From positions 80,744-144,743 of the forward strand of contig NZ_JAFKFW010000010.1 in assembly GCF_017308015.1 (NCBI RefSeq): a DNA stretch of 64,000 nucleotides, in the 5' to 3' direction. The translations under genes and the position numbers were made by a program. Position 1 is the stretch's first letter; every line of letters begins with the position of its first letter. The notes beneath the pieces were generated by a model. That model had not been told where the DNA came from. It saw only the letters and a list, made by a program, of their open reading frames with translations, and did not search any database. Positions 16,604 to 34,546 of this stretch are shown piece by piece. The stretch is from Allobosea sp. (GTDB lineage Bacteria; Pseudomonadota; Alphaproteobacteria; Rhizobiales; Beijerinckiaceae).

Positions 16604-16638
16604 GCGATCCTCTCCAGGTGGCTTGCCGGAATGAAAAA

Positions 16639-16664
16639 GGCCCCGGATGTCGTCATCCGGGGCC
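16639..16664. terminator. Bidirectional terminator between P-loop gene and pal
   Basis: GGCCCCGGATG (16639-16649) pairs perfectly with CATCCGGGGCC (16654-16664) around a TCGT loop. TCTTTCTTTTT follows on plus and AAAAA precedes it (T-tract on minus), so it works in both directions. Confidence 0.9.
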
Positions 16665-16690
16665 TCTTTCTTTTTATCTCTGCGATCAGA

Positions 16691-17206
16691 TCAGACGCCG
16701 GGGGCGCCGCCGGCGCCGTCCAGCACCGTGACCGAGCGGCGGTTCTGCGACCAGCAGGAGATGTCGTTGCAGACCGCGACCGGGCGCTCCTTGCCGTAGG
16801 AGATGGTGCGCATGCGGTTGGCAGCGATGCCGCGCGAGGCCAGATAGTCGCGCACGGTCTGGCCGCGGCGGGCGCCGAGCGAATAGTTGTACTCGCGGGT
16901 GCCGCGCTCGTCGGCATGGCCTTCGACGGTGAAGGTATAGCGCGGATAGCGCTGCAGCCAGCCGGCCTGCTTGTCGAGGGTCGCGACGGCGGTCGAGGTC
17001 AGGTCAGTCGAGTCGGTCTCGAAGAAGACGCGGTCGCCCACGTTGACGACGAAGTCCTGTGCGCTGCCTGGCGTCGCGGCACCGCCGGCGCCGAAGCCCG
17101 AGGCATCCGCGTTCTGGTCCTTGGCGCAAGCGCCGAGCGCGAGCGTGGCGGCGATGGCGGCGGCGAAACGGACGGCACGGCTGCCGGGAACGAGAGTGGT
17201 CAACAT
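16691..17206 (-). CDS. pal: Peptidoglycan-associated lipoprotein Pal
   Basis: The 171-aa protein has a lipoprotein signal ending in LALGAC (lipidated Cys about residue 27), a short linker and an OmpA-like domain with VFFETDSTDL, VEGHADERGTREYN and GARRGQTVRDYL, all standard for Pal. It anchors the outer membrane to peptidoglycan and interacts with TolB. The start at 17206 (MLTTLVPG) is preferred over ATG 17224. It is normally immediately downstream of tolB and upstream of cpoB; here 2.4 kb of opposite-strand genes separates it from tolB, and cpoB is 17 kb away. Confidence 0.96.
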   Translation of the reverse strand: MLTTLVPGSRAVRFAAAIAATLALGACAKDQNADASGFGAGGAATPGSAQDFVVNVGDRVFFETDSTDLTSTAVATLDKQAGWLQRYPRYTFTVEGHADERGTREYNYSLGARRGQTVRDYLASRGIAANRMRTISYGKERPVAVCNDISCWSQNRRSVTVLDGAGGAPGV

Positions 17207-17505
17207 GGCTGGACTCCGGGGCAATCGAATTCATGTGGCGGCGCGCTTCGACGAGGCGTCGCGATACCTCATCAATGAACCGTCAACCTAAACGAGACCT
17301 TGCCAAATCAGGGCGAAGTGGCGGCATTGCGGCTTATGGTTAACCAAGTATGGCAAAAAGCGCTTCCAGCCTCGTCTGTTGCTTCGCGGGCACAGCGATA
17401 GCCGGTGCCTTGACGGAAATGCTCCCCGCCGGCGGTCTCGGGCGCCGGCGATCAAGGCGCTCATGCTTCCCGGCCAACAGATACGGCCTCTCGGGTTGAC
17501 GAAAT

Positions 17506-17548
17506 CATAGCTGAGTGGTTATTGAATAATTCATAGCCATTCGGTTAT
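17506..17548 (+). promoter_or_regulatory. Tandem ArsR-type operator and promoter
   Basis: Two 17-bp sites, CATAGC-N5-GGTTAT at 17506-17522 and 17532-17548, repeat in direct orientation with 26 bp centre spacing. Each is itself an imperfect palindrome. TTGACG (17496-17501) is a good -35 just upstream, and the -10 position falls around 17519-17524, inside the first site. The arrangement fits autorepression by the ArsR protein starting at 17558. Confidence 0.6.
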
Positions 17549-17557
17549 GGGTTTTTG

Positions 17558-17881
17558 ATGTCCGATACGCATGATCAGCTCTTCAAGACGCTCGCCGATC
17601 CGACCCGGCGGGGCATTTTCGAGCGCCTGTGCAGCCAGGGCGAGCAGACGGTCGCGGCGCTGACGGCGCAGGCTGGCGTGTCGCAACCGGCCGTCTCCAA
17701 GCATCTGGCCGTGCTGAAGCAGGCCGGGCTGGTGCGGGACCGCCATCAGGGCCGCCAGACGCACTACAGCGCGCAGCTCGCTGCGCTGGCGCCTTTGGCT
17801 GACTGGACGAACCGCATGGCCGGATACTGGGAAAACCGGTTCGACGATCTCGAAGATCTGCTCAAGAGGATGGACCAATGA
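17558..17881 (+). CDS. ArsR/SmtB-family repressor (SdpR-like)
   Basis: The 107-aa winged-helix regulator contains LFKTLADPTRRGIFERL, the recognition helix VSQPAVSKHLAVLKQAGLV and wing RQTHYSA. It lacks the metal-binding CxC motif of arsenic sensors, as is usual for ArsR proteins paired with AHSA1-domain genes. The ATG at 17558 is used. Its stop overlaps the next start (ATGA). A tandem operator overlaps the promoter, so it probably represses its own three-gene operon. Confidence 0.92.
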   Translation: MSDTHDQLFKTLADPTRRGIFERLCSQGEQTVAALTAQAGVSQPAVSKHLAVLKQAGLVRDRHQGRQTHYSAQLAALAPLADWTNRMAGYWENRFDDLEDLLKRMDQ

Positions 17882-18297
17882 CCGAAACACGCTCCGTCAT
17901 CGTCGAGCGCGAGATGCCGCATCCGCCGGAAAAGCTCTGGCGGGCGCTGACGCAATCTCACCTGATCGCGGAATGGCTGATGAAGAACGACTTCGTGCCG
18001 GCGGTCGGCCACCGCTTCAACCTGCGCGGCGACTGGGGCGGCGTGCTCGATTGCGAGGTGCTGGCGGTCGAGCCGAACAGGTCGCTCTCCTATAGCTGGG
18101 ACTTCGCGCATGACGATCCGGCCTATGCCCTGAAGAGCGTGGTGACCTTCACGCTCACGCCTTCGGCGAAGGGTACGCATCTGCGCATGGAGCAGGTCGG
18201 CTTCCGGCCGGAGCAGAAGCAGGCCTTCGGTGGCGCCAAGGCCGGCTGGCAGCAGTTCTTCGCCAAGCTGGAAGAGGTTGCGGCGCGTGCCGATTGA
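17878..18297 (+). CDS. SRPBCC / AHSA1-domain protein
   Basis: The 139-aa protein begins VIVEREMPHPPEKLWRALTQS, the START-like AHSA1 fold, and ends WQQFFAKLEEVAARAD. Such proteins have a hydrophobic pocket and are very often co-encoded with ArsR regulators; the ligand is unknown. Translationally coupled to the upstream arsR gene by an ATGA overlap. Confidence 0.9.
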   Translation: MTETRSVIVEREMPHPPEKLWRALTQSHLIAEWLMKNDFVPAVGHRFNLRGDWGGVLDCEVLAVEPNRSLSYSWDFAHDDPAYALKSVVTFTLTPSAKGTHLRMEQVGFRPEQKQAFGGAKAGWQQFFAKLEEVAARAD

Positions 18298-18339
18298 GGC
18301 GGCGCCTCTTCTCCTGCCCCGTGATCAAAGGAGCTTTCC

Positions 18340-18579
18340 TTGACCTGGAATACCGCAATCCGACAGGGCCATCGCTGGCTGTCGATCATCTTCACGGCGA
18401 CAGTCCTCGCGAACTTCATCGCGATGGCGCGTGGCGAACCGCCGGCCTGGATCGTCTATTCGCCCTTGCTGCCGCTTTTCCTGCTGCTGTTCAGCGGGCT
18501 CTATCTGTTCGCGTTGCCCTATGCCGCCAAGCGGCGCGCCCGGCGACAGGCGGAAGCGAACGTCCAGCTTTCCGGCTGA
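18340..18579 (+). CDS. Small two-segment membrane protein
   Basis: The 79-aa protein has two hydrophobic segments (about 14-29 and 39-60) and a basic C-terminus (KRRARRQAEA). It starts at a TTG (18340) preceded by AAAGGAG at optimal distance, which decides the start. It is the third gene of the arsR-AHSA1 operon. Small membrane proteins of this kind commonly accompany such pairs; the function is unknown. Confidence 0.75.
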   Translation: MTWNTAIRQGHRWLSIIFTATVLANFIAMARGEPPAWIVYSPLLPLFLLLFSGLYLFALPYAAKRRARRQAEANVQLSG

Positions 18580-18705
18580 GCGCGAAAGAATTGCGCAAAC
18601 GGGGCGTGGAATTGCAGCGCAACTTTCGCGCGCGCCGGTCTACCGTGTGGGCTTGCGATCCGATGCCTGCGTCGGTTTGCCTTCCTGTCCCGAGCGGAGA
18701 TCGCG

Positions 18706-19506
18706 ATGGCCCATTCCCTCAAATCCGGCGCTGCGAGCGTGACGCCCCTTCGCGGCCCGAACCAGCCCGCTCTCGATTCCGATATCGTCTGGGAAGCGCG
18801 CCGCGATCTCGCCGCGACGTTCCGGATGGCGGCGCGCTACGGTTTCGAGGAGGGTATCTGCAATCACTTCTCGGCGCTGGTGCCGGGCTATGACGACCTG
18901 TTCATCGTCAATCCCTATGGCTGGGCCTTCCGCGAGCTGACGGCCTCGAAGCTCCTGATCTGCGACTTCCACGGCAATGTCGTCTCGGGTGAGGGGCAGC
19001 CGGAGGCGACCGCCTTCTACATCCATGCCCGGATTCACAAGAACATCCCGCGTGCCAAGGTCGCCTTCCACACGCATATGCCCTACGCGACCGCGCTCTC
19101 GATGACGGAGGGCGCGCCGCTGGTCTTCGCCGGGCAGACGGCACTCAAGTTCTATGGTCGCACAGCAGTCGACAGCGACTATAACGGGCTGGCACTGGAC
19201 GAGCGCGAGGGCGACCGGATCGCCGCCGCGATCGGCGATGCCGATATCGTCTTCATGAAGCATCACGGCGTGATGGTGCTCGGACCGAATATCGCCGAGG
19301 CCTGGGACGATCTCTACTATCTGGAGCGGGCCTGCGAGGTGCAGGCGCTGGCGCTCGCGACGGGGCGAGAGGTCAAGCCGGTCAAGCCGGAGATCGCGGA
19401 AGCGGCCTATCGCCAGATGCGCGAGGGCGATCCGGAATCGGCGCGCCTGCACCTGGCCTCGATTCGTCGGCAGCTCGATACGGAGGAGCCAGTCTATCGC
19501 GATTGA
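18706..19506 (+). CDS. Class II aldolase/adducin family protein
   Basis: The 266-aa protein contains the class II aldolase fold with metal-binding FHTHMPYATALS, MKHHGVMVLG and an upstream GICNHFSALVPG block (N-terminal substrate region). The family includes L-fuculose phosphate aldolases and many uncharacterised members; this full-length adducin-like version is close to those annotated only as class II aldolase. It may belong to the same plus-strand island as the arsR operon. A hairpin terminator follows. Confidence 0.9.
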   Translation: MAHSLKSGAASVTPLRGPNQPALDSDIVWEARRDLAATFRMAARYGFEEGICNHFSALVPGYDDLFIVNPYGWAFRELTASKLLICDFHGNVVSGEGQPEATAFYIHARIHKNIPRAKVAFHTHMPYATALSMTEGAPLVFAGQTALKFYGRTAVDSDYNGLALDEREGDRIAAAIGDADIVFMKHHGVMVLGPNIAEAWDDLYYLERACEVQALALATGREVKPVKPEIAEAAYRQMREGDPESARLHLASIRRQLDTEEPVYRD

Positions 19507-19523
19507 GCGGGCGCGCAAAAGCC

Positions 19524-19556
19524 AGGAAGCCGCCCGACATTGCCGGGCGGCTTCCT
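19524..19556. terminator. Bidirectional hairpin between aldolase gene and tolB
   Basis: AGGAAGCCGCCCG (19524-19536) and CGGGCGGCTTCCT (19544-19556) pair perfectly over 13 bp with a 7-base loop, between convergent genes. No long T-tract follows on plus. Confidence 0.75.
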
Positions 19557-19584
19557 GAAAGGTCTGCTGACGACGCCTCGCGCT

Positions 19585-20931
19585 TCAGCGCTGGCCGCTG
19601 AGCAAGGGCGACCATGTGGGGTCGGAGGCGAAGGCCGGGGTCGGCACAGGCACTTCGACGCGGCCGGTGATGTCGACCATGTAGAGCTTGCCACCGGACT
19701 GGCCGCCGGGATCGCGAAAGAACATGATGTACTGGCCGTTCGGCGCCCAGTTCGGGGCCTCGTTGTGGAAGCCCTCGGTCAGGATGCGCTCGCCCGAGCC
19801 GTCCGGCCGCATCACGCCGATGGCGAAGCCGCCGCCGCCCTGGCGGGTGAAGGCGATGAGGTCCCCACGCGGCGACCATGAGGGCTGCGAATAGCGGCCC
19901 TGGCCGAAGGAGATGCGCTGGCCCTCGCCGCCGCCGGCGGGCATCACGTAAAGCTGCTGCTGACCGCCGCGGTCGCTCTCGAAGACGATGCGCGAGCCGT
20001 CGGGCGCATAGGAGGGCGAGGTGTCGATCGCGGCCGTCGAGGTCAGGCGCGTGGTCGAGCGCGAGCCGATGTCGATGGCGTAGAGATTGGCGTTGCCGCC
20101 TTGCTGGAGAGAGAGCACCACGCGCTGGCCGTTCGGCGCGAAGCGCGGGCTCGAGCTCATGTCCGGGAAGTTGCCGACGATCTGGCGCTGGCCGGTCTCG
20201 ATGTTCAGCACCTGTACGCGCGGCTGCTCGCCCTGGCGCTGGGTCATGAAGGTGACATCCTGCGAGACAGGCGAATAGCGCGGCGTCACCACCGAGACAT
20301 CGCCATTGGTGAGGTAGCGCACGTTGGCGCCGTCCTGGTCCATGATGGCGAGACGCTTGCGGCGCGTTTCCTTCGGGCCGGATTCATCCACGAAGACGAC
20401 GCGTGTGTCGAAGAAGCCGCCGAGCCCGGTGATCTTCGAGAAGATCGCATCCGAGATGATGTGGCCGACGCGGCGGTTGTTGCTGGGGTCGGTGAAATAT
20501 TGCTGGCCGTCCGTCTGGGTGCCGGTCGCGACGTCCCAGAGCCGGAACTCAGCCCGGATGCGTCCGGCTTCGCGCGAGACGCGGCCGGTGACGAGGGCCT
20601 GCACGCCAGCCGCCTGCCAGGCCTGGAACTGAGGTGCGGCATCGAAGGGCGGGTTCTTCTCGGGGTGCCGGGCCTTGTCGATCGGCGTGAAGTAGCCACA
20701 GCGCTTCAGGTTGTTGGCGATGACGCCGGAGACGAGCACCCCGCCTTCCCCACCGAAATCGGCGATGGCGATCGGCATCGGCTGGAAGGCGCCGCCGGTC
20801 AGGTTGATGACGAGCTCGGCCTTGGCGGCAGCGGGCACGAGCAGCGCCGCGCCCGCGGTCGTGAGGAGCCGGCGGCGCGTTGGTGTGGCCGCGAGGAAGG
20901 TGAGGGGGCTGTTGTCGATCATCGGGGTCAC
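19585..20931 (-). CDS. tolB: Tol-Pal system translocation protein TolB
   Basis: The 448-aa periplasmic protein has an N-terminal signal with RRR before a hydrophobic stretch ([23 protein letters not shown], possibly Tat-compatible), the TolB N-domain, and a C-terminal six-bladed beta-propeller with TolB repeats ([54 protein letters not shown]). The GTG at 20931 overlaps the tolA stop (GTGA); ATG 20922 is the alternative. It links Pal to TolA. pal does not follow directly, contrary to the usual order. Confidence 0.95.
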
Positions 20932-22130
20932 ATGACGTCCCTGGCGTCGAAATTGACGACGACATCGCGCCAGTCGTCGTAATAGGAGGCGAATTGAGCC
21001 GGGATGCGCAAGGGTGCGCAGCGGCGGGTGGCGGTCAGCGCCGAATCGGCAGCGACCCGGAAGAGCGGATCCGCGGAGGAGTTGATCACGCCGGGCTGGC
21101 CGATGAGCGAGCCGTCGGTGTTCAGCTTCATCCGCACGGACGGCACGACATTGCTGCTGCCATGGGCGTTGGCGAGCGCGATCGGCACGTTCCAGCACTT
21201 CAGGAGTTGCTCCTGGATGATGCCGATGAGCTGAGACCTCAGCGAAGGACTGAGCTTCTGCGAGGTGCCGCGTTCGGTGCCGAGCGAGGCGGTGCGGTTC
21301 ACCTGCGGTGCCGAGGAGCCGGACGACTGCGCCTTCTCCTTGGACTGCAGCAGCTTGGCGATGTCGTTCGCGTTGAAGTTCTTGGCGACCTCCGCCTCCT
21401 TCTTCGCCTTGGCCTCGGCTTCCTGCTTGGCCTTGGCCTCGGCGGCGAGCTTCACCTTCTGCTCGGCCTTCGCCTTGGCGGCAGCTTCGGCCTTTTCCTT
21501 CGCGGCCTTCTCGGCTTCTGCCTTGGCGAGCGCCTCGGCCTTGGCCTTCGCGTCGGCGGCGCGCTTGGCGGCCTGGGCGTCGGCTTCCGCCTTGGCCTTG
21601 GCTGCGGCCTTCGCTTCTTCCTCCGCCTTCTTCGCCTTGGAGGCGAGTTCGGCCTCCTCGGCGAGCCTGGCCTGTTCCTCGCGCTTCTGCTCGGCCTCGC
21701 GGGCGGCTGCGGCCTCGCTCTTCTGCGGGGTCTGCTTGGCCGGCTCGGGCGGCTTGGCCTCGGGCTTCGGCTGCTCGACCGGGCGGGCCGGCGGCGGGGG
21801 CGTCGTCGCGTTGTTCTCGGCAGTCTTCAACTCGGGCGGACGCGAGGGCGGGGCCGGCGCATCGGCCTTGGCCTCGCCGGCCTCCTTGCGCTCGACCATC
21901 TCGGACTGACGCTCGGCGCGCGGGGTCGGCTGCGCCTGAACCTTCTCGGCGCTGCGCTCGCCACGCGTCACCTGGTTCAACGCGCTGGGATCGACTACCT
22001 CGACGGCGATCGCCTCCTCGTTCTCCGGCAGCGGCGCAGGCGACGAGAACGCCAGCAGCCCCGCGACGAGGAACGTCACGTGGCCGAGCGCCGACACCAG
22101 CATGCCAGGTTCGGAGGTCGAAAGCTTCAC
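20928..22130 (-). CDS. tolA: Cell envelope integrity protein TolA
   Basis: The 400-aa protein has a GTG start, an N-terminal membrane anchor (about 10-24), a proline-rich stretch, a very long Ala/Lys/Glu helical domain (about 120-270) that spans the periplasm and a C-terminal TonB/TolA-like domain with [11 protein letters not shown] and [20 protein letters not shown]. It transmits energy from TolQR to Pal/TolB. It overlaps tolB by four bases and lies 28 bases after tolR. Confidence 0.94.
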
Positions 22131-22158
22131 GCCCTTAACGTCCTTACTCTCACGATCC

Positions 22159-22611
22159 TCAGCGGCTCGCCGGCTCGGTGACGAGCGCGACCCGCTTGAA
22201 GCCGGCGGCGGTGATGGTCGACATCACCGAGGCGACGCGGCCGTAATCCACCTGCCTGTCGCCGCGAACATAGATGCGCTCGTCGAAGCCCTGCTTCGCC
22301 AGGCCCTGGAGCCTGGCGACGAGGTCGGGCTCGAGCGTCGGCTCGTCCTGCAGGAAGATCTGGCCTTTGCTGTCGATGGCGATGGTCAAGGGCTTCTGGT
22401 CGACATTGATCGGCTTGGCGCCGGTCTGCGGCAGGTCGAGCGGGACGCCGGTCGCGATCAGCGGCGCGGCGACCATGAAGATGATGAGCAACACCAGCAT
22501 GACGTCGATGAACGGCGTCATGTTGATCTCGGCGATGGCGCCGTGACGGCGCCCGCGCCGGCCCCGGCGGCCGGAACCGCCCTTTGCGCCTGAAGCGGCT
22601 GACATACCCAT
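22159..22611 (-). CDS. tolR: TolR, ExbD-family energiser
   Basis: The 150-aa protein has a Gly/Arg-rich N-terminus, the single membrane segment INMTPFIDVMLVLLIIFMV with the proton-path aspartate (FIDVML), and a periplasmic ExbD-like domain (VDQKPLTIAIDSKG, IYVRGDRQVDYGRV). It forms the ion channel with TolQ. Eleven bases separate it from tolQ. Confidence 0.96.
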   Translation of the reverse strand: MGMSAASGAKGGSGRRGRRGRRHGAIAEINMTPFIDVMLVLLIIFMVAAPLIATGVPLDLPQTGAKPINVDQKPLTIAIDSKGQIFLQDEPTLEPDLVARLQGLAKQGFDERIYVRGDRQVDYGRVASVMSTITAAGFKRVALVTEPASR

Positions 22612-22622
22612 CGCTCAGGCCC

Positions 22623-23333
<711 letters not shown>

Positions 23334-23670
23334 CCTGTCATCCTTCTCACCCAGGCGGTACGGCCGATGCTGGACGCTTCGAGGCGCCAGCCCCGGCCCA
23401 AACCCCGCCGCTCGCGTCGCGGGAGACCCACGCCGCCGCCCGATCCGCGATCCGGGGAAATGCCGTATCCCTCCAATCGCGCGTGAATCCGGCGAAAGAT
23501 GGGCCGAAACGGGGTTTCCCACGGAACGCATGCTCCAGACCGAGTTAAGCATCCGGCAAGGTTAATGTCGGGTATACGTGGGCGACCGCGACATTCCGGA
23601 AACGAGTCGCAGACAGGCAAAGTCATGCTGGCGTCCGTTTCGCGCCGGTTCGGAGCGAGGGTGGCGTGCA
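23334..23670. other. Divergent intergenic region tolQ / kinase
   Basis: A 337-bp region between divergent genes. No RNA gene or riboswitch was recognised. TATACG near 23572-23577 could be a -10 for the plus-strand kinase gene, but no matching -35 is clear. Confidence 0.35.
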
Positions 23671-24207
23671 ATGAACCTCACGGGCGAGATCCTTATCCTG
23701 ACCGGACCGCCAGGCTCCGGGAAAACGACCGCGGCTCAGGCGCTGGCCCGCGAACCGGGTTCCCCGAAGGTGCATCTCCATTCCGACGATTTCTGGCACG
23801 TCATCAAAAACGGAGCGATCGCTCCCTATCTGCCGGAAGCGCACGATCAGAACGCTGTCGTCGTCGACGTGCTGGCGCAGGCCGCCGCCGGTTATGCAAG
23901 CGGCGGGTACTTCGTCATTGTCGACGGCATCATAGGGCCGTGGTTCCTGGCCGCCTTCAGGCGCATCCAGGCGACCATCCATTATGTCGTTCTCCGTCCC
24001 GCTCTCGACGAAGCCATCCGGCGCTGCCGCGACCGTGGCGGGGACACGCTGACCGATCCCGGCACGATCACGGAACTCCACAGACAGTTCTCGTCACTCG
24101 GCCTCCTCGAGCGCCACATCCTGCCGGTCGCCGCGCAGAGCCGTAAGGATACTCTCGACGCAGTGGCCAAGGCCGTCCGCAGCGGAGATTTCCACCTGTC
24201 GCGTTGA
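23671..24207 (+). CDS. P-loop small-molecule kinase-like protein
   Basis: The 178-aa protein starts MNLTGEILILTGPPGSGKTTAAQALA, with Walker A GPPGSGKT (about 13-20), HLHSDDFWH after strand 2, and an Arg-rich lid (RRCRDRGGD), as in AAA_33/chloramphenicol-phosphotransferase-like kinases. The ATG at 23671 has GGAGCGAGGG upstream. It is a plus-strand passenger between tolQ and the DUF2852 gene. The substrate is unknown; antibiotic resistance cannot be inferred. Confidence 0.78.
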   Translation: MNLTGEILILTGPPGSGKTTAAQALAREPGSPKVHLHSDDFWHVIKNGAIAPYLPEAHDQNAVVVDVLAQAAAGYASGGYFVIVDGIIGPWFLAAFRRIQATIHYVVLRPALDEAIRRCRDRGGDTLTDPGTITELHRQFSSLGLLERHILPVAAQSRKDTLDAVAKAVRSGDFHLSR

Positions 24208-24296
24208 CAAGCTCGGGCGACAGACGCCTCTGTTCGGCGCGGTGCGATATCCGCTCGTCGTTAGGGCTGCGGCGCCACGTAGCGGCGGCCGGACCG

Positions 24297-24362
24297 GAAG
24301 AAGCCCGCCCGGGGCCGGGGCGGGCCTGGCTGATCGAACCAATGGTTCGGGCGGGGGCTTCT
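24297..24362 (+). promoter_or_regulatory. Alternative hairpins before lipoprotein gene
   Basis: GCCCGCCC (24303-24310) can pair with the near GGGCGGGC (24318-24325), or within a longer stem GAAGCCCGCCCG with the distal CGGGCGGGGGCTTC (24348-24361). The longer stem would enclose a second perfect hairpin, CGAACCA/TGGTTCG (24335-24349). It may be a terminator of the kinase gene or a leader structure; no T-tract follows. Confidence 0.4.
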
Positions 24363-24479
24363 CCTGACGAAAAACTGGCTGAAACCTTCTCCGAAAAGCT
24401 CTACGACTGCTGTTGCGGCCAGCATCCGCATCAAGATGCAGAAGTGAAACGGGTTGCTTTCTGAACGGAGAGGTTTCCC

Positions 24480-25061: not shown

Positions 25062-25136
25062 GGGCATCACCGGAACCCTGGCAACCCGGCTCGCGGGCGG
25101 CCAGGGTGACCCGCGCAGACAGCAGCCGAAACGGAA

Positions 25137-25165
25137 AGCCCGCCCCGGCGGTTGCGGGGCGGGCT
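25137..25165. terminator. Hairpin between lipoprotein and DUF2852 genes
   Basis: AGCCCGCCCC (25137-25146) pairs perfectly with GGGGCGGGCT (25156-25165) between convergent genes. The T-tract is weak on both sides. Confidence 0.65.
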
Positions 25166-25193
25166 AGATCCAAGCCGGGCGGCAGCCGGTGCG

Positions 25194-25652: not shown

Positions 25653-25677
25653 TGCTCCCTCACTGGGCCAGCGTGAA

Positions 25678-25694: not shown

Positions 25695-25745
25695 TAGATG
25701 CGCTCGACCCTGCGGCTTGTCAAGAAGGCGGCCTGCGGAAAAGAA

Positions 25746-26402: not shown

Positions 26403-26418
26403 GTAAGGAGCGCTAACA
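26402..26418. promoter_or_regulatory. Palindromic operator at the tetR start
   Basis: TGTAAG-GAGCG-CTAACA is an imperfect inverted repeat (one mismatched pair) with the same geometry as the perfect site at 25678-25694. Placed over the translation start, it is a likely autoregulatory site. Confidence 0.5.
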
Positions 26419-26441
26419 TGCGGGCAGGGCCGCGTCGACTG

Positions 26442-26846
26442 TCAGTCCTCCAGCATCAACCGCTTGCGCAGGCCGTCGGGGATGCGCCGGGCGCGGCCAC
26501 CGCCGACACAGGCGACCCTGACGGCGGCGGTGATCAGGGCCTCCCCGCCGCGCAGCACGCGCTGTTCGAGGTCCATGGTGGCGCCGCGCGCCTCGATGCA
26601 AGCGGTCTCGACCGTCAGCAGGTCGTCCATCACGGCGGGCCGCAGGAAGTCGATCGTCATCTTGCGCACGGCGAAGCCGAGCGCCGTCTCGCCGTCGAAG
26701 AGCTCGCGCTGCTCGATGCCGAGCGCGCGGATCAGTTCCGTGCGGCCGCGCTCCATGAAACGCAGATAGGAGGCGTGGTAGACGACGCCGGAAAAATCGG
26801 TGTCCTCGTAGTAGACGCGGACTTCGAGGCGATGGACCCTGCTCAT
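26442..26846 (-). CDS. ybgC: Tol-Pal-associated acyl-CoA thioesterase YbgC
   Basis: The 134-aa hotdog-fold thioesterase begins MSRVHRLEVRVYYEDTDFSGVVYHASYLRFMERGR, containing the catalytic YYEDTDFSGVVYH motif of the YbgC/4-hydroxybenzoyl-CoA family. The start at 26846 fits the family. It normally heads the tol-pal operon; here tetR, DUF2852 and two plus-strand genes lie between it and tolQ. Confidence 0.93.
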   Translation of the reverse strand: MSRVHRLEVRVYYEDTDFSGVVYHASYLRFMERGRTELIRALGIEQRELFDGETALGFAVRKMTIDFLRPAVMDDLLTVETACIEARGATMDLEQRVLRGGEALITAAVRVACVGGGRARRIPDGLRKRLMLED

Positions 26847-26973
26847 GGCGCTCCGGAGCGGTATCGAACGGTAGCTGTTGCCATAGACCAACAGATGCAG
26901 CTTCGGAAAGGCCGGAACCGTGCCGCCGGAGATGCGTTCCCGATGGCGTGATCACAGCAAGGGAGAATCTTTC

Positions 26974-27486
26974 ATGGCGCAATCCAGCAAGGCGACCGCG
27001 CGGCTGCTCGACAAGGCCGAGGCCGATCTCGTAGCCCGCAGCCGGCGCGGCGCGATCGGGGCTCTCCCGGATGATGAATTGCGTGATCTCGCGGCCAAGC
27101 TGCGCGAGCGCCGTGACAAGGCGCGCGATGGCGCCCGGCGCCAGAGGCGTGAAATGCGCGGCAAGGCGGAGCCGAAGGGCGCCAGACCTGCAACCGACAA
27201 CACCGGCACCAAAGCCAAGGCCGATGCGCTGACGGCTGCGCTGAAGCGCGTCGGCGCCGAGCGCACCCGGCGGGAAGAGAAAGCGAAGCTGCCGAGCCAG
27301 CGCAGCCTCGCGCGCAAAGCACTCGCTCTCAGGCAGCGCCAGCGCGCCGCGGAACGGCCTGCCAGTCGCACGGCGGGCAAAGGCATGCGGGCGGTCGAGA
27401 ATCCGAAGGGGGCGAAGTCCGGGGCGCTGAACGATGCGGGTGCGCGTCCTGCGCTGATGCGCTCGAAGGTCGCGCGTCAATCCTAA
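26974..27486 (+). CDS. Basic low-complexity hypothetical protein
   Basis: The 170-aa protein is rich in Arg, Lys and Ala (isoelectric point clearly high), with GAIGALPDDELRDLAAKLRERRDKARDGARR near the N-terminus and no membrane segments. RBS GGGAGA precedes ATG 26974. It may bind nucleic acid, but no family is recognised. Divergent from ybgC and convergent with the DUF3828-like gene. Confidence 0.65.
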   Translation: MAQSSKATARLLDKAEADLVARSRRGAIGALPDDELRDLAAKLRERRDKARDGARRQRREMRGKAEPKGARPATDNTGTKAKADALTAALKRVGAERTRREEKAKLPSQRSLARKALALRQRQRAAERPASRTAGKGMRAVENPKGAKSGALNDAGARPALMRSKVARQS

Positions 27487-27510
27487 TGCAACACACAGTC
27501 CTGCGGGCGC

Positions 27511-28038
27511 TCAGCGCTTGCAGGGCTTGTCCATGAAGGAGCCGCAGTCATAGGGCTGCGACAGGGCGTCCCGGATCGAATAAGCCTTGCCTTCGAAGCT
27601 GTTGACGATGTCGTCGATGCGCCAGCCGCCACTTTCCCGCAGCATCCTGAACTCGACGACGACCGGTTTACCGAAGCTGCGGAAGTTCGCCAGTACCGTC
27701 GCCTTGCCAGCCGCGGCGGGGAGCGTATCGAGGTTCAGCTTCTTCACCTCGCCGTCCTGACCGTTGATGAAGGGATCGGCGTCGACATGCCCCGTCTCGC
27801 CGGCCTCGTCCTGATAAAGGTCGTCGCGGGCAAAGAGAGCGGCCAGGCTCCTGCTCATCAGCTTGTCGCGATGCGGCGGGCGCCAGGGTGGCTCGCCGCG
27901 GCCGGCAAGCGTCCTCATCGTGATGGCATAGGCCTCCTTAACGGGGCCTGCAGGGACACTGTCGTCGGCGAGGCCGGTGCCGGCTGCCATCAGGCCGAAG
28001 GCCACAACACTTGATAAAATCATGCGACTTGCCGGCAT
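27511..28038 (-). CDS. Exported DUF3828-like hypothetical protein
   Basis: The 175-aa protein has a signal peptide (MILSSVVAFGLMAAGTGLA) and a mature region with VLANFRSFGKPVVVEFRMLRESGGWRIDDIVN, the fold expected of DUF3828 (NTF2-like) proteins. ATG 28038 has GGAG upstream. It is probably periplasmic. Its function is unknown. It follows ruvB on the same strand after about 80 bases. Confidence 0.78.
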   Translation of the reverse strand: MPASRMILSSVVAFGLMAAGTGLADDSVPAGPVKEAYAITMRTLAGRGEPPWRPPHRDKLMSRSLAALFARDDLYQDEAGETGHVDADPFINGQDGEVKKLNLDTLPAAAGKATVLANFRSFGKPVVVEFRMLRESGGWRIDDIVNSFEGKAYSIRDALSQPYDCGSFMDKPCKR

Positions 28039-28119
28039 GGGCGAACTCCAGGGCGATACCCGACCGATGAAGCGCGGTGGGCAGGCGCGCATCCTTCATA
28101 TGCGGGACGGCTTGCCGCG

Positions 28120-29172
28120 CTATTCGCCGTCCTCCCCATCTCCGAACAGCCCGAACTGCCCGCTCTCCCGCGACGGCTCGGGCATGCCGAGGTGGCGGAA
28201 GGCGTGGGGCGTGAGAAGGCGTCCGCGCGGGGTGCGCTGGATGAAGCCCTGCTGGAGCAGGAAGGGCTCGATGATCTCCTCGATCGCGTCGCGCGGCTCG
28301 GAGAGCGATGCGGCGATGGTCTCGATCCCGACCGGGCCGCCGCCGAAATTGACCGCGACGGTGGTGAGGTAGCGTCGGTCCATCTGGTCGAGGCCGATGG
28401 CATCGACGTCGAGCAGGGAGAGCGCCTTGTCGGCGACCTTGCGGGTGACGATCGGATCGCCGTCGACGATGGCGAAGTCGCGCACGCGGCGCAGCAGGCG
28501 CCCGGCGATGCGCGGCGTTCCGCGCGAGCGCCTGGCGATCTCGTTGGCGCCGTCGTCGGACATCGGCACGCCGAGCACGCGCGCGCCACGTGCGACGATG
28601 CCCTGCAATTCCTCGACCGTGTAGAACTGCAGGCGGACGGGGATGCCGAAGCGATCACGCAGCGGCGTGGTCAGGAGGCCGGCACGGGTGGTGGCGCCGA
28701 CGAGCGTGAACTTGGGCAGGTCGATCTTGACCGAGCGGGCGGCCGGGCCTTCGCCGATGATCAGGTCGAGCTGGTAGTCCTCCATCGCGGGATAGAGGAT
28801 TTCCTCGACCGCCGGATTAAGGCGGTGGATCTCGTCGATGAAGAGCACGTCGCGTTCTTCGAGATTGGTGAGCTGGGCGGCGAGATCACCGGCTTTCGCG
28901 ATGACCGGGCCGGAGGTCGAGCGGAAATTGACGCCGAGTTCGCGTGCCACGATCTGCGCGAGCGTCGTCTTGCCGAGACCGGGCGGGCCGACGAAGAGGA
29001 CATGGTCGAGCGCGTCGCCTCGGCTTTTGGCAGCGTTGATGAAGACCTGGAGATTGGCGCGCGCCGCCGCCTGCCCGGTGAAATCGGCGAGCGAGAGCGG
29101 CCGCAGCGAGGTTTCGCTGTCGTCGTCGCGCTTGTCGGCCGTCATCAGGCCGGAGCGTTTGGGTTCGCTCAC
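28120..29172 (-). CDS. ruvB: Holliday junction helicase RuvB
   Basis: The 350-aa AAA+ motor of the RuvABC resolvasome has Walker [12 protein letters not shown], Walker [10 protein letters not shown], sensor [27 protein letters not shown], and C-terminal winged helix [14 protein letters not shown]. The GTG start overlaps the stop of an upstream GNAT gene. That gene separates ruvB from ruvA, an unusual insertion. Confidence 0.98.
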
Positions 29173-29660
29173 AGCGCGATCTCCAGCTCGATGGCGTCGT
29201 GGATCGGAATGTCCTTGTACCCTGTCTTGATGATGCCCGGCACGACCGAGCGATAGGCATCGATGGCCTCGAGATAAAGCCCCGAAAGGCGAAAGCCGCA
29301 GCGCTGGTAGAAGGTCATGCCGGGCATGTTGTCGTTGGTCAGCATCGCCTTGAGCTTCGTCGCGCCTGCCGCCCGGGCGGTGTTCATCACGGCATCGAGC
29401 ATCCGGACCGCGACGCCTTCGCCGGGCTTCAGCGAATGGAGTGCGCAGAGATAGGCAATGTCGCCCCGGAGCGTCCAGCTCGCGAGCGCGGCGGTGGCTC
29501 CGGACGGTTCGTAGAGGCCAAGCGCGTCGATTTCAGCGATGTCGTAGACGTGAAGGTCGATCATCATGCTGTGCGAGCCCCAGTTCGCCAGCATGATGCG
29601 GCAGAGCTCGGTCTTGTCGGTGACGATGCGCAGTTCAAGCTCGTCGGGCGGCTCGCTCAC
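29169..29660 (-). CDS. GNAT-family N-acetyltransferase between ruvA and ruvB
   Basis: The 163-aa protein contains the acetyl-CoA-binding region [16 protein letters not shown] and the C-terminal [15 protein letters not shown] typical of GNAT enzymes. Its ATG overlaps the ruvA stop and its own stop overlaps ruvB (ATGA and GTGA), so it is fully embedded in the ruv operon. The substrate is unknown. I know no standard GNAT at this place in the ruv operon. Confidence 0.88.
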
Positions 29661-30274
29661 TTCGCCAGTTCCTTCAAGCCCAGCCTGATGAGCTGGGCTG
29701 TGCCGGCACCATCGCCGGCGGCCTTGGAGGCAGCCGCTACCGCGGCCACGGCCTGCGCCTGAGGATAGCCGAGATTGGCGAGCGCGGACACGGCGTCGGC
29801 GATCGGCTGCGGCAGTTTCCTGTCTTCGAGGGCGCCCGAGAGCTGCACGACGCCCGGGTCGATATGGCCGAAGGCCGGGGCCTTGTCCTTGAGCTCCGCG
29901 CAGAGGCGCTGCGCCAGCTTGGGGCCGACTCCGGGCGAGCGCGCGATCGCGGCCTTGTCGTTGGTGGCGATGGCGGTAGCGAGGCTGCCTGGATCGAGCG
30001 TCGAAAGGATCGCGAGAGCGACCTTTGCGCCGACGCCCTGCACCACCTGCATCAGGCGGAACCAGTCACGCTCGACATCCGACAGGAAGCCGTAGAGGCG
30101 GATCGCATCCTCGCGGACATGGGTCTCGATCGACAGCGCCGCCGCCTCGCCGGGCTTCGGCAGCCGCTGGAGCGTGCGCGCCGAGCATTGCACGACATAG
30201 CCGACGCCCTGCACGTCGATGATGACGTGGTCCTCGCCATAGGAATCGATCAGGCCCTTGAGCTTGCCGATCAT
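29657..30274 (-). CDS. ruvA: Holliday junction DNA-binding protein RuvA
   Basis: The 205-aa protein has the N-terminal OB domain ([21 protein letters not shown]), helix-hairpin-helix motifs ([13 protein letters not shown] and [13 protein letters not shown]) and a C-terminal RuvB-binding domain with [12 protein letters not shown]. Complete. It follows ruvC by 25 bases. Confidence 0.98.
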
Positions 30275-30299
30275 CGTCTGGTTCCCCCGGCCGTCTTCA

Positions 30300-30815
30300 T
30301 CAACCCGCCGCGCGCATCTGCGCGACCAGAGCCTTCATGCCGCGATGCTGGGCATGGCAGATCGCGACGGCGAGCGCGTCCGCAGCGTCGGCAGAACTCG
30401 TCTCGGCCTTGGGCAGGAGGACCCGGATCATCGCCTGGATCTGTTTCTTGTCGGCATGGCCGACGCCGACCACGGTCTTCTTGACGAGGTTGGCGGCGTA
30501 CTCCGCGACATCGAGCCCGGCGAGCGCCGGCACGACCAGCGCGATGCCGCGGGCCTGGCCGAGCTTCAGCGCCGATTGCGGGTCGCGGTTGATGAAGGTC
30601 TCCTCGACGGCGGCCTCATGCGGGCGATGCGCCGCAAGGACCTTGTTCAGGCCTTCATGCAGTTGCCGCAGGCGCTGGCCGAGCGGCAGCGCGCCATCGC
30701 TCTCGACGCAGCCGCAGGCGACGAAGGAGAGCTTGCTCCCTTCCGAGAGCACGATGCCCCAGCCGGTTTTGCGGAGGCCGGGGTCGATGCCGAGGATGCG
30801 AATCGGGGGTGCCAT
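30300..30815 (-). CDS. ruvC: Holliday junction endonuclease RuvC
   Basis: The 171-aa resolvase has catalytic acidic residues in ILGIDPGL (D11), the AAVEETFIN block, and the C-terminal [14 protein letters not shown]. It cleaves four-way junctions as a dimer. First gene of ruvC-ruvA-GNAT-ruvB; separated from yebC by an opposite-strand transporter gene, whereas these are usually adjacent. Confidence 0.97.
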
Positions 30816-30978
30816 GACGAGCCCAACCTAACGGATGTTTCGGATTTGTCCCGCGCCGAGACGAGCCTCGGCGGGCGGCGGGATGAATTCCGCTGATCCA
30901 TGACATCAAAAAGCAAAGTTGTTCTTGCCGCGGGCCCGCGGGCATGGTTGGCCTCGCTTTTGTCCTTGTACTGGCTTC

Positions 30979-31758
30979 ATGTCCTCGACCCTGTCTTCCT
31001 TCATGCCGGGCCTCAACGCTGACGGCATCGCCGTCCTGCTGGCCGCAACATTGTTCGGTGGCCTGGTCCGTGGCTTTACCGGCTTCGGCTTCGCCATGGT
31101 GTTCATGCCGCTGGCCTCGGTCATCCTCGGGCCGGTCGCGGCGCTCGGCCTGATCTGGTTCATCGACCTGCCCTTCGCGCTGCCGATCGCGGCGCGCAGC
31201 GCCAAGACGGCGGAATGGCGCGAAATCCTGCCGCTGCTGCTGACCGCGACGCTCGCCCTGCCTGCCGGAATCTGGCTGCTGATCTGGCTCGATCGCGAGA
31301 CGATGCGCTGGGTGCTGGCCCTGCTCGTGCTCTTTGCCGTGGCGTTGATGGCGTCCGGCTGGCGCTACCACGGGCGTCCGACGGTGCCGCTCTCGCTCGG
31401 CGTCGGTGCGCTGTCGGGACTGTTCAACGGCATGGCTTCGATCGGCGGCATGCCGCTCGCGGTATTCTGGCTCGGCGCCCAGCGCAACGACCGGCACAAG
31501 ACGCGGGCCAATATGCAGGCCTTCTTCGGCGTCTCGACGCTGATCAGCGGCATGGTGCTGTGGTGGAAGGGAATTCTCACCGTTGGAGCGTTGCTGATGG
31601 CGGTGCCGCTCTTCGCGATCTACGGCGTAGGCCTCTGGGCCGGGACGCATGGCTTTCGACTGGCGTCGGAGGATACGTTCCGGCGTGGAGCCTATCTGGT
31701 GATCTTCCTGAGCGCGCTGATCAGCCTGCCGCTCTGGGACGTGGTGATCGGGCGGTAG
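30979..31758 (+). CDS. TauE/SafE-family sulfite or organosulfur exporter
   Basis: The 259-aa protein has eight hydrophobic segments and family blocks LFGGLVRGFTGFGFAMVFMPL and VGALSGLFNGMASIGGMPLAVFWL (duplicated half motif with G-x-G). ATG 30979 is chosen by family length; upstream in-frame starts add charged residues. It stands alone on the plus strand between ruvC and yebC. The transported anion is unknown. Confidence 0.87.
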   Translation: MSSTLSSFMPGLNADGIAVLLAATLFGGLVRGFTGFGFAMVFMPLASVILGPVAALGLIWFIDLPFALPIAARSAKTAEWREILPLLLTATLALPAGIWLLIWLDRETMRWVLALLVLFAVALMASGWRYHGRPTVPLSLGVGALSGLFNGMASIGGMPLAVFWLGAQRNDRHKTRANMQAFFGVSTLISGMVLWWKGILTVGALLMAVPLFAIYGVGLWAGTHGFRLASEDTFRRGAYLVIFLSALISLPLWDVVIGR

Positions 31759-31771
31759 CGTAAGGCTCCTG

Positions 31772-31862
31772 TCGCCACGCTCGCCCTTGTGGCGAGCGCC
31801 CATGTTCTTGAACACGACTTTCGACCCGCGAAGTCGTGGATGGTCGAGACAAGCCCGACCAT
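31772..31862. repeat. Triple stem-loop intergenic element
   Basis: Three consecutive perfect inverted repeats: CGCTCGCC/GGCGAGCG (31778-31798), CACGACTT/AAGTCGTG (31813-31838) and ATGGTCG/CGACCAT (31840-31862). The last (GGTCG-x-GACAAGCCCGACC) resembles a palindromic repeat I associate with rhizobial genomes. It lies between convergent transporter and yebC genes. Confidence 0.6.
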
Positions 31863-31886
31863 GACATGGGACGCGGTGGCGCTGCC

Positions 31887-32633
31887 TCAGGCGCTGAGCT
31901 TCGCCATGATGTCGTCGGCGATCTCGAAATTGGCGAAGACGTTCTGGACGTCGTCGTCGTTGTCGAGGGCCTCCATCAACCGCATCATCGAACCGGCCTT
32001 CTCCTCGTCGAGCGGGGCGGTCGTGGTCGGACGCCAAACGGGCTTCGCCGAGGCCGGGGCGCCGAGCGAGGCTTCGAGCGCCTTGGAGACCTCGTTCAGC
32101 GCGTCGAATGCGCAGAGGATGGTGTGGCCGTTCTCGTCCGAAATCACGTCGTCGGCACCGGCTTCGATCGCGGCTTCCATCAGCTTGTCGGCATCGCCCG
32201 CCTCAGGCGGATAGCTGATCTCGCCGACACGGTTGAACATGAAGGAGACGGAGTTGCTTTCGCCCAGCGCGCCGCCGGCCTTGGTGAAGTAGGAGCGCAC
32301 GGCGGAGGCGGTGCGGTTGCGATTGTCGGTCAGCGCCTCGACGATGACGGCGGCGCCGCCCGGGCCATAACCCTCGTAGCGGACCTCGTCGTAGTTCTCG
32401 CCTTCGCCGCCGGCCGCCTTGTTGATGGCGCGCTGGATGTTGTCCTTCGGCATGTTCTCGGCACGCGCGGCGAGCACAGCCATGCGCAGGCGCGGGTTCA
32501 TGTTGATGTCGGGCATGCCCATCTTGGCGGCGACTGTGATTTCGCGGGCCAGTTTCGAGAACAGCTTGGAGCGCACCGCGTCCTGCTTGCCCTTGCGGTG
32601 CATGATGTTCTTGAACTGGGAATGGCCGGCCAT
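31887..32633 (-). CDS. yebC: YebC/PmpR-family protein
   Basis: The 248-aa protein starts [19 protein letters not shown] and contains [23 protein letters not shown] and [28 protein letters not shown], definitive for YebC. Members act in transcription regulation and in relieving ribosome stalling. Upstream is the TIGR00282 phosphoesterase, forming the conserved cyclo-ligase-phosphoesterase-yebC run. Confidence 0.97.
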
Positions 32634-32739
32634 GGGGACTCGTTACCTTCTTACGAGGGTTGCGGCGAAACATGCTGGAAGCCGGGCCTTATAGGCGCCG
32701 CCGCCCGCTTCCTGCAAGACGGGGGAGGGCAGGCTTCCG

Positions 32740-33564
32740 TCAGGACACCCAGGCCGTCGGGACCGCTTCGCTGAGATGCGGGCCGATCCGTACGGCCCAG
32801 ACCGCCCTGGCCAGACCAGTGGAGTCGTCGATATCGACCGCGACGCCCGACAGCGTGCCTTCGCCGGTTGCCGGTTCCAGCCTTGCGCCCGGCACCTTCT
32901 GCAGGAAGCGGCGTATCGGCTCGTCCTTCTGCATGCCGAGGACGGAATCGTAGTCGCCGCACATGCCGGCATCGGATTGATAGGCCGTGCCGGCCGGCAG
33001 GATGCGGGTGTCCGAAGTCGGCGCATGGGTATGCGTGCCGACGACGAGGCTGGCGCGCCCATCGAGGAAATAGCCCATGGCCTGCTTCTCGCTGGTCGCT
33101 TCGGCATGGACATCGACGATGACGGCATCCGCCACTTCGCCGAGGGGGCAGGCGGAGAGTTCGCGCTCGACCGCCGCGAAGGGGTCGTCGAGCGCGTCCA
33201 TGAACAGCCGCCCCATGACGTTGACGACGAGGACGCGGGCGCCGTTGCGGGCCTCGATCACGGTCGCGCCCCGGCCGGGCGTTCCGGGCGGATAATTGGC
33301 CGGGCGGATCAGTCGATCCTGCCGGGCGATGAAGACGAGCGCCTCGCGCTGGTCCCAGGAATGGTTGCCCAGCGTGACGACATCGGCGCCTGCCGCGAGA
33401 ATCTCGTCGCAGATCGCCTCGGTGATGCCGAAGCCGCCGGCGGAGTTCTCGCCGTTGATGACGACGCAGTCGAGTTTCCAGGCCTCGCGCAGGGCGGGCA
33501 GCCGCTCCTGAACCGCAATCCGGCCGGGGCGGCCGACGATGTCACCGAGGAAGAGAAGACGCAT
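32740..33564 (-). CDS. TIGR00282-family metallophosphoesterase (YmdB-like)
   Basis: The 274-aa protein carries the metal ligands in MRLLFLGDIVGRPGR, VINGENSAGGFG, VVTLGNHSWDQ, DVHAEATSEKQA and GTHTHAPTSD, diagnostic for the YmdB cyclic-nucleotide/RNA phosphodiesterase family. Full length. Located between the cyclo-ligase and yebC genes on the same strand. Confidence 0.95.
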   Translation of the reverse strand: MRLLFLGDIVGRPGRIAVQERLPALREAWKLDCVVINGENSAGGFGITEAICDEILAAGADVVTLGNHSWDQREALVFIARQDRLIRPANYPPGTPGRGATVIEARNGARVLVVNVMGRLFMDALDDPFAAVERELSACPLGEVADAVIVDVHAEATSEKQAMGYFLDGRASLVVGTHTHAPTSDTRILPAGTAYQSDAGMCGDYDSVLGMQKDEPIRRFLQKVPGARLEPATGEGTLSGVAVDIDDSTGLARAVWAVRIGPHLSEAVPTAWVS

Positions 33565-33619
33565 GAAACAGACTCGAAAACCGTGAAGGCTTTCTCCCTC
33601 GCTCGAAGGCGCGCGGGAA

Positions 33620-34204
33620 TCAACCGCAACGAATGGCTTCGTGCTCGGTCACGATCCAGTCGAGGCGCCGGTCATGCGGCTCGTCCGGCACCGCCCCGAT
33701 CTCCTGTGCAGCATAGCCGATGCCGATGCTGACGGTCGGGCCGGGTTCGCCGAGAGCGCGGTCGTAATAGCCCTTGCCGTAGCCGATGCGGTAGCCGCGC
33801 CGGTCGAAGGCGGCGAGCGGTACGAGCAGGATAGCGGGATTCAGTTCCGGCTGATCGGGCGCGGGAACCAGCGTGCCGAAGCCGCCGGGCACGATCGGCT
33901 CATAGGGCGCCCAGCGCCGGAAGATCATGCGCTTCTCGACGATCGCCGGCAGGCAGAGCGGCAGGCCGCGCTCATGCAGGGTTTCGAGGATGGGGCGGGG
34001 ATCGGCTTCCGAGCGCATCGGCCAATAGGCCGAGACCGGGCCGGCGCTGCCTTTCCAGACGGGCAGGGCAAGCGTGCGCGCGGCGATCTCGGCGTCCCAT
34101 TCCAGCCTGTTGTCGAGGTCGAGCGCGTCGCGACGGGCCAGCGCCTCCGCGCGCAGGGCCGCCTTGAGCGGGGAGGGCGGAGCGTGCGTGCCGGACGTCG
34201 TCAT
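33620..34204 (-). CDS. fau: 5-formyltetrahydrofolate cyclo-ligase
   Basis: The 194-aa enzyme converts 5-formyl-THF to 5,10-methenyl-THF with ATP. Motifs: LKAALRAEALARRDAL at the start, ISAYWPMRSEAD-like (VSAYWPMRSEAD), LLVPLAAFDRRGYRIGYGKGYYDRAL. The ATG at 34204 (MTTSGTHAPP) suits family length. The 6S RNA candidate lies immediately upstream on the same strand, a known linkage. Confidence 0.95.
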   Translation of the reverse strand: MTTSGTHAPPSPLKAALRAEALARRDALDLDNRLEWDAEIAARTLALPVWKGSAGPVSAYWPMRSEADPRPILETLHERGLPLCLPAIVEKRMIFRRWAPYEPIVPGGFGTLVPAPDQPELNPAILLVPLAAFDRRGYRIGYGKGYYDRALGEPGPTVSIGIGYAAQEIGAVPDEPHDRRLDWIVTEHEAIRCG

Positions 34205-34261
34205 AAGGGCTGCGGAGCCACCTCGGCCGTGGAGTTTTGAATCCCGGGACACCTACTAAAG

Positions 34262-34408
34262 TAGGTGGGCGCCGTGTGTCCGGCTCCGATGGAACCGGTC
34301 AGGGACAGCTCCCTAGGGAGTCGTATGGGCCCGGGGAATGCTGTCTCTCACGCACCAGGCAGCCCCGCTTCGCCAATGTAAGGAAGCCGCCGGCAAAGCG
34401 CCAGAGGT
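34262..34408 (-). ncRNA. ssrS: Probable 6S RNA (ssrS)
   Basis: Read on the minus strand, this approximately 147-nt region folds into one long hairpin. A closing stem pairs GGCGC near the 5' end with GCGCC near the 3' end, a second stem pairs CGGCTTCC with GGAGCCG, an open central bubble follows, and a terminal stem pairs AGAGACAGC with GCTGTCCCT. The 3' end GGCGCCCACCTAC resembles alphaproteobacterial 6S RNAs. It sits directly upstream of the cyclo-ligase gene, the classical ssrS location. Ends are estimated to a few bases. A short hairpin, CACCTAC-TTTA-GTAGGTG, abuts the 3' end. Confidence 0.72.
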
Positions 34409-34546
34409 CTTTGCGGGGCCGATGCGAATTCCTCGGCCGCAGGCGCGCCCGGTGTTCAGACCGGCCATGTACCCGTTCATATTTTGGCCGTGGTGCGCTG
34501 ATGGTATAGAGACAGCGCGCGACATGTACGGAAACCGGTTTCAGCG

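What the first reader, a model, noticed from the sequence alone, without database searches (positions are those of the whole stretch)
16605..34546. A single inversion explains split zapA-6S-cyclo-ligase and pal-cpoB linkages
The left side runs tkt-, DUF4164+, zapA+, and then the block pal, tolBARQ, ybgC, ruvBAC, yebC, phosphoesterase, cyclo-ligase, 6S all on minus, followed by cpoB-tilS-ftsH-glmM on plus. Two linkages known across proteobacteria, zapA-ssrS-cyclo-ligase and pal-cpoB, are both broken, and flipping only the 16.6-34.5 kb block restores both. Likely breakpoints lie near 16.1-16.6 kb (a P-loop kinase gene there) and 34.41-34.55 kb. I see no repeats at the ends that would explain it.
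Basis: partly seen in the sequence, partly recalled or inferred. Interest (0 to 1): 0.8.

Follow-up and report, generated by a model that had tools for sequence, protein, structure and literature searches.

The report
Ancient 18-kb inversion in Bosea
In one branch of the bacterium Bosea a stretch of about 18,000 bases, carrying the 6S RNA gene, the Ruv DNA-repair genes and most of the Tol-Pal envelope genes, was flipped once with the cuts falling between genes' control signals, and the species of that branch have kept it, which offers a natural test of what turning genes against DNA replication does.

Summary
The window is from Bosea. Of 67 genus genomes, 21 (window included) have both new junctions: zapA tail-to-tail with pal, 6S divergent from cpoB. 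Of the other 46, 44 keep an old junction and two cannot be judged. The old order, zapA-6S-fcl-ymdB-yebC-ruvCAB-ybgC-tolQRAB-pal-cpoB, also occurs outside the genus. Inverted genomes form one side of one branch in a block tree (support 99) and in a left-flank tree without outgroups (99.5): one old inversion shared by close relatives.

The cuts spare the signals. One lies between zapA (or the P-loop gene behind it) and the 6S promoter region, the other near the pal terminator, upstream of the conserved cpoB promoter region. No inverted repeat longer than 10 nt was found.

In the old order the block reads away from hemE (taken as origin marker); inverted, it reads towards hemE in 6 of 7 genomes. 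Third-position GC skew fell in 12 of 12 block genes, rose in the one opposite-strand block gene tested, and was unchanged in 6 of 8 flanking genes; zapA and DUF4164 rose, unexplained. Protein divergence did not rise. A known kind of event, well documented; modest interest.

The parts
15720..16088 (+). zapA, left flank of the inversion
   Evidence: PF05164 match at this place, E 5.1e-21
16106..16603 (+). P-loop (AAA_18/shikimate-kinase-like) gene on the zapA side of breakpoint 1
   Evidence: weak Pfam matches below cut-off; same position behind zapA in inverted G026 (81% id) and in standard-order G053, G057 (68-69%)
16604..16690 (.). breakpoint 1 junction interval (zapA side joined to pal 3' end)
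   Evidence: zapA-pal junction in 21 of 67 genus genomes
16638..16665 (.). hairpin with T-runs on both sides, likely shared terminator of pal and the zapA-side unit; hairpins of this type follow pal in 21 of 21 inverted genomes
16691..34368 (-). inverted block: pal, tolBARQ, ybgC, ruvBAC, yebC, phosphoesterase, cyclo-ligase, 6S (with several plus-strand genes inside)
34211..34368 (-). 6S RNA gene (ssrS)
   Evidence: RF00013, 79.2 bits
34375..34404 (-). 6S promoter region: TACATT at -12..-7 and the conserved CTGGCGCTTTGCCGGC block over the -35 region
   Evidence: block within 2 mismatches in 22 of 23 standard and 15 of 16 inverted genomes examined
34405..34477 (.). breakpoint 2 junction interval (73 nt between the two promoter regions)
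34478..34510 (+). cpoB promoter region: conserved CATATTTTGGCCGTGG block and TATAGA
   Evidence: block within 2 mismatches in 16 of 16 standard and 15 of 15 inverted genomes examined
34547..35488 (+). cpoB, right flank of the inversion, followed by tilS, ftsH, glmM
   Evidence: TIGR02795 match, E 6.1e-36

Best explanation
One two-breakpoint inversion, in place, of about 18 kb in the ancestor of one major Bosea clade. Breakpoint 1 fell between the zapA unit and the 6S promoter region; breakpoint 2 at or just behind the pal terminator, upstream of the cpoB promoter region. Every transcription unit kept its promoter, so 6S-fcl and cpoB-tilS became a divergent pair and zapA and pal became convergent, with a new shared terminator hairpin. 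The block passed from co-directional to head-on with replication and its base composition drifted accordingly. Shown: both junctions, polarity, single origin, conserved promoter regions, skew shift. Inferred: promoter and terminator function, origin side from hemE, and repair by end-joining or a fork error rather than by repeat recombination.
For: Both new junctions in 21 of 67 genus genomes (in G002 and G055 on separate contigs). Of the other 46, 42 have pal-cpoB adjacent, G064 has it by gene order, G004 has zapA-6S adjacent; G059 and G061 cannot be judged. Standard order in 23, as far as each fetched stretch goes. Outside the genus zapA-6S are adjacent (same strand, under 3.5 kb) in 53 of 71 and pal-cpoB in 61 of 73 genomes where both were found; 11 of 38 non-genus loci carry the whole row from zapA to cpoB (6S itself not found in one of them, G139). 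Inverted genomes are one side of one branch: 20 rows in the block tree, SH-aLRT 99, 21 rows in the left-flank tree without outgroups and with a simpler model, 99.5. Promoter blocks kept. zapA stop to 6S is 42-44 nt in 7 un-inverted genomes. 6S and pal read away from hemE in 7 of 7 standard and towards it in 6 of 7 inverted assemblies of 1-3 contigs, while zapA and cpoB read away in 13 of these 14. GC3 skew: 12 of 12 block genes lower in inverted; sulP, on the other strand, higher; pgk, gap, tkt, cpoB, tilS, ftsH unchanged.
Against: The left-flank tree with distant outgroups puts G041 with the standard clade (2 changes, which its starred branches force; long branches meet). zapA and DUF4164, outside the block, also changed skew (up in inverted genomes), which this account does not explain. 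G012 has the whole region turned, with the block away from hemE. The skew comparison rests on one event, so its p-values are not independent evidence. In 4 of 31 genomes the longest inverted match between junctions was 1 nt above the second-highest of 30 shuffles. A consensus scan found no sigma-70 promoter at either junction.
Confidence: 0.94

Rival explanations
1. The inverted order is ancestral and the standard order arose by a second flip.
For: The two Bosea clades are both deep, so the genus alone does not polarise the change.
Against: Eleven of 38 non-genus loci carry the whole standard row from zapA to cpoB and none of the 38 shows pal- next behind zapA. The new junctions were not searched for in the other 45 non-genus genomes, but pal-cpoB is adjacent in 61 of 73.
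Confidence: 0.02
2. The block is a reversible switch, flipped repeatedly by a recombinase or by flanking inverted repeats.
For: Other flips occur in this neighbourhood (G066, the 'other' clade, G081, G138).
Against: Orientation follows the tree with a single change in two of three trees (two changes); no exact inverted match over 10 nt between the junctions in 31 genomes; the genes next to the junctions in the window are not recombinases.
Confidence: 0.02
3. The block was excised and reinserted in the other direction, or was replaced by horizontal transfer of an inverted copy.
For: The flank tree with distant outgroups places G041 differently from the block tree.
Against: Each edge of the block is joined to the flank of the other edge, the simplest outcome of inversion in place; flank and block trees agree on the inverted group once distant outgroups are left out.
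Confidence: 0.02

Closest known systems
Local bacterial chromosome inversions that turn genes from leading to lagging strand (debate of Merrikh & Merrikh 2018, PMC6220195, and Liu & Zhang 2022, PMC9098844)
   Same: Co-directional genes become head-on; orientation compared with a sister group and outgroups, with third-position GC skew as confirmation, is the method that Liu & Zhang call standard.
   Different: Here one block of about a dozen core genes and the 6S RNA is retained in 21 sampled genomes with flanking genes as internal controls; no rise in protein divergence was seen.
zapA-ssrS-fau (ygfA) gene array
   Same: The standard Bosea order has zapA, 6S and cyclo-ligase in a row.
   Different: Split by the inversion. 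PMC7641849 (passages read) says ssrS is often flanked by ZapA and EVE genes in beta/gamma- but not alpha-proteobacteria; here zapA-6S adjacency is common in this alphaproteobacterial order (53 of 71 non-genus genomes; EVE was not looked for).
tol-pal cluster (ybgC-tolQRAB-pal-cpoB; name and order recalled)
   Same: Standard order has the full row.
   Different: In inverted genomes cpoB is cut off from pal, and in many of them plus-strand genes also sit between pal and tolB.

Membership tests
Simple two-breakpoint chromosomal inversion | Both block edges joined to the opposite flanks, internal order kept | tested here: met
Simple two-breakpoint chromosomal inversion | Outgroups carry the un-inverted order | tested here: met
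   11 of 38 non-genus loci have the whole row
Simple two-breakpoint chromosomal inversion | Single origin on a tree | tested here: met
   one change in the block tree and in the flank tree without outgroups; two changes in the flank tree with distant outgroups
Repeat-mediated inversion | Inverted repeats at the two breakpoints | tested here: not met
   longest exact inverted matches 7-10 nt, shuffled medians 6-9, in 31 present-day genomes; 4 of 31 are 1 nt above the second-highest shuffle. Repeats lost since the event cannot be excluded
Phase-variable invertible element | Orientation varies among closest relatives | tested here: not met
   orientation is constant within the clade
Phase-variable invertible element | Both orientations in one culture | not testable with these tools
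   no reads available
Origin- or terminus-symmetric (X-type) inversion | Breakpoints symmetric about origin or terminus | tested here: not met
   zapA lies 0.90-1.71 Mb to one side of hemE in 16 of 17 assemblies of 1-3 contigs (0.63 Mb in G040), hemE as origin marker being recalled; terminus position itself not tested

The most novel reading that the evidence does not exclude
The upstream edge of the 6S promoter is a preferred rearrangement breakpoint: zapA|6S was cut in the window's clade, apparently again in G066, in G003/G047 and in the small-genome members (G040 and kin), and it also takes up inserted genes. In the window's clade the cut left promoter regions untouched and a head-on 6S/Ruv/Tol-Pal block has persisted, which speaks against head-on placement being strongly harmful or mutagenic for these genes.
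Probability: 0.35. Interest if true: 0.55.

Novelty: new member of a known kind. Interest (0 to 1): 0.42.

Why it matters
It is a one-event natural experiment placed on a tree: about a dozen core genes plus 6S RNA, in the same place on the chromosome, apparently co-directional with replication in one Bosea clade and head-on in its sister, with un-flipped neighbours as controls. It allows direct tests of the dispute over whether lagging-strand genes evolve faster, and suggests that the pal-cpoB and zapA-6S linkages can be dispensed with when each unit has its own promoter and terminator.

Tried and rejected
Repeat-mediated flipping: no exact inverted match over 10 nt between the junctions in 31 genomes (for inserts over 400 nt only the last 200 nt were used in standard genomes), and none of the 25 longest of 593 inverted pairs listed for the window joins the two junction intervals. 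Origin symmetry: rejected by distance from hemE. dnaA as marker was set aside because its distance from hemE varies. Faster protein evolution of head-on genes: outgroup-to-inverted over outgroup-to-standard distance ratios were 0.955-1.021 for 11 block genes and 0.83-1.01 for 7 flank genes (cpoB with one outgroup only), no sign of acceleration; within-clade divergence is lower in the inverted clade for 18 of 21 genes. A consensus scan found no sigma-70 promoter at either junction, so the promoters rest on conservation and spacing only. Literature: '6S RNA + zapA + alphaproteobacteria', 'Bosea + tol-pal' and 'Bosea + 6S RNA' returned no paper; 'Bosea + inversion + synteny' returned 3, judged unrelated from the listing; two searches gave the papers cited. 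In this open-access library these searches found no report of the inversion.

Rows dropped before counts: G039 in the 6S promoter check is an artefact of a 6S gene cut at the locus end (it is the one miss of 16). Genomes lacking either gene of a pair were left out of that pair's tally. G055 is not in the block tree. Nine genus genomes (G025, G030, G033, G040, G043, G046, G054, G059, G061) were put in no group and are in no tree. The gene-order table covers 62 of 66 genus relatives and 38 of 83 other genomes.

Full report
Identity. The window is G000:C12:80744-144743. The closest named relatives of its cyclo-ligase are Bosea contigs, so the genus is taken as Bosea.

Comparison. I took stretches of up to 20 kb downstream of zapA from 62 of the 66 genus relatives and 38 of 83 other genomes of the family and order and mapped the window's proteins on them. 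Within the genus there are two arrangements of the same block, plus derived ones. Standard (23 genomes, as far as each stretch goes): DUF4164-zapA-6S-fcl-ymdB-yebC-sulP(reversed)-ruvC-ruvA-ruvB-ybgC-tetR-DUF2852-tolQ-tolR-tolA-tolB-pal-cpoB-tilS-ftsH. Inverted (21 with the window): DUF4164-zapA, then the block reversed, then cpoB-tilS-ftsH. Profile positions show both new junctions in those 21 (in G002 and G055 on separate contigs). Of the other 46, 42 have pal-cpoB adjacent, G064 has it by gene order and G004 has zapA-6S adjacent; G059 and G061 cannot be judged. Named examples: Bosea robiniae, B. thiooxidans and Bosea sp. 47.2.35 have cpoB beside the cyclo-ligase (inverted); B. caraganae is standard.

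Polarity and number of events. Outside the genus zapA and 6S are adjacent in 53 of 71 genomes in which both were found, pal and cpoB in 61 of 73, and 11 of 38 loci carry the whole row. Inside the genus pal-cpoB is not adjacent only in the inverted 21 and in G059, where the two genes are on different contigs, of 64 with both. A tree of ten block proteins (48 rows, 20 inverted) puts the inverted genomes on one side of one branch, SH-aLRT 99. A tree of the left-flank proteins Pgk-Gap-Tkt needs two changes when three distant outgroups are included, because long-branched G041 moves, but one change, support 99.5, for all 21 when they are left out and a simpler model is used. G041 has the same two junctions as the rest. 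All trees are quick searches without bootstrap.

Breakpoints. In seven un-inverted genomes with no insert the zapA stop and the 6S gene are 42-44 nt apart, so the conserved 6S promoter region starts about 4-6 nt behind zapA. The block CTGGCGCTTTGCCGGC over its -35 region is within two mismatches in 22 of 23 standard and 15 of 16 inverted genomes examined (the inverted miss is an artefact). In standard genomes pal is followed by a G+C-rich hairpin and then CATATTTTGGCCGTGG upstream of cpoB; that last block is kept in 16 of 16 standard and 15 of 15 inverted genomes examined. In 15 inverted genomes the two blocks face each other across 35-265 nt (73 nt in the window). Pal in 21 of 21 inverted genomes is followed by another hairpin type (stem CCCCGGAC or CCCCGGAT), seen in none of the 17 standard genomes printed; in the window it has T-runs on both sides and could serve both converging units (function inferred). 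Exact inverted matches between the junction gaps are 7-10 nt; in 4 of 31 genomes they are 1 nt above the second-highest of 30 shuffles, otherwise within them. The P-loop gene sits directly behind zapA in both arrangements in the four genomes in which it was found.

Consequence for replication. Taking hemE as marker of the origin side (recalled from other alphaproteobacteria), 6S and pal read away from it in 7 of 7 standard assemblies of 1-3 contigs and towards it in 6 of 7 inverted ones; zapA and cpoB read away in 13 of those 14 (contigs taken as circular). G012 is the exception, with the whole region turned. Third-position (G-C)/(G+C) of block genes is -0.069 in standard and -0.233 in inverted genomes; 12 of 12 genes go down. 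The TauE gene, on the other strand of the block, goes up (-0.083 to +0.018). Pgk, gap, tkt, cpoB, tilS and ftsH do not change. ZapA and DUF4164 rise, which I cannot explain. Since all inverted genomes share one event, these are clade contrasts, not independent samples. Protein divergence from outgroups is not raised in block genes.

Other rearrangements. In a group of un-inverted Bosea, yebC no longer follows ymdB within the fetched stretch (10 genomes); pal lies 22-27 kb upstream of zapA on the opposite strand in eight genomes and 43-45 kb downstream on the same strand in four. G066 has 6S-fcl-ymdB reversed; in G003 and G047 6S is on another contig than zapA; in G040 zapA is 270 kb from an intact 6S-to-cpoB row, and in G030, G033 and G054 that row is on another contig than zapA. 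So zapA|6S seems to be a repeated breakpoint, but contig breaks limit this and no rate was tested.

Verdict. An ordinary class of event, clearly shown, with clean breakpoints and a useful replication-strand contrast. Of the papers, I read part 1 of 2 of the text of PMC9098844, the abstract and outline of PMC6220195, and passages of PMC7641849.

Noticed in passing
L119 (G048) 18217-19323, minus strand: A gene that looks like D-alanine-D-alanine ligase (by eye, recalled; no family search) lies between zapA and 6S; similar sequence ends precede 6S in several other un-inverted genomes.
   Followed up: partly
zapA-pal junction of G022, G023, G029, G037, G039, G060 and others: Short palindromic repeats around GTCATGCTCGGG...CCCGAGCAT sit in the junction, like REP elements; they may be later insertions.
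   Followed up: no
window 17555-19506: ArsR-type, AHSA1 and class II aldolase genes on the plus strand between pal and tolB, found in part of the inverted genomes (aldolase in 13 relatives) and between pal and tolB in none of the 23 standard ones; pal is therefore cut off from tolB too.
   Followed up: partly
G012 contig C1: The whole zapA-to-cpoB region is turned relative to hemE, and dnaA is about 2.5 Mb from hemE: a larger inversion or an assembly error.
   Followed up: no
G081 (L186), G138 (L189): Other local flips in this cluster outside the genus: fcl-ymdB-yebC reversed in G081, the tolQ-tolR-tolB-pal group reversed in G138.
   Followed up: no
zapA and DUF4164 genes of the inverted clade: Third-position G-C skew is higher than in standard genomes although these genes were not flipped.
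   Followed up: no
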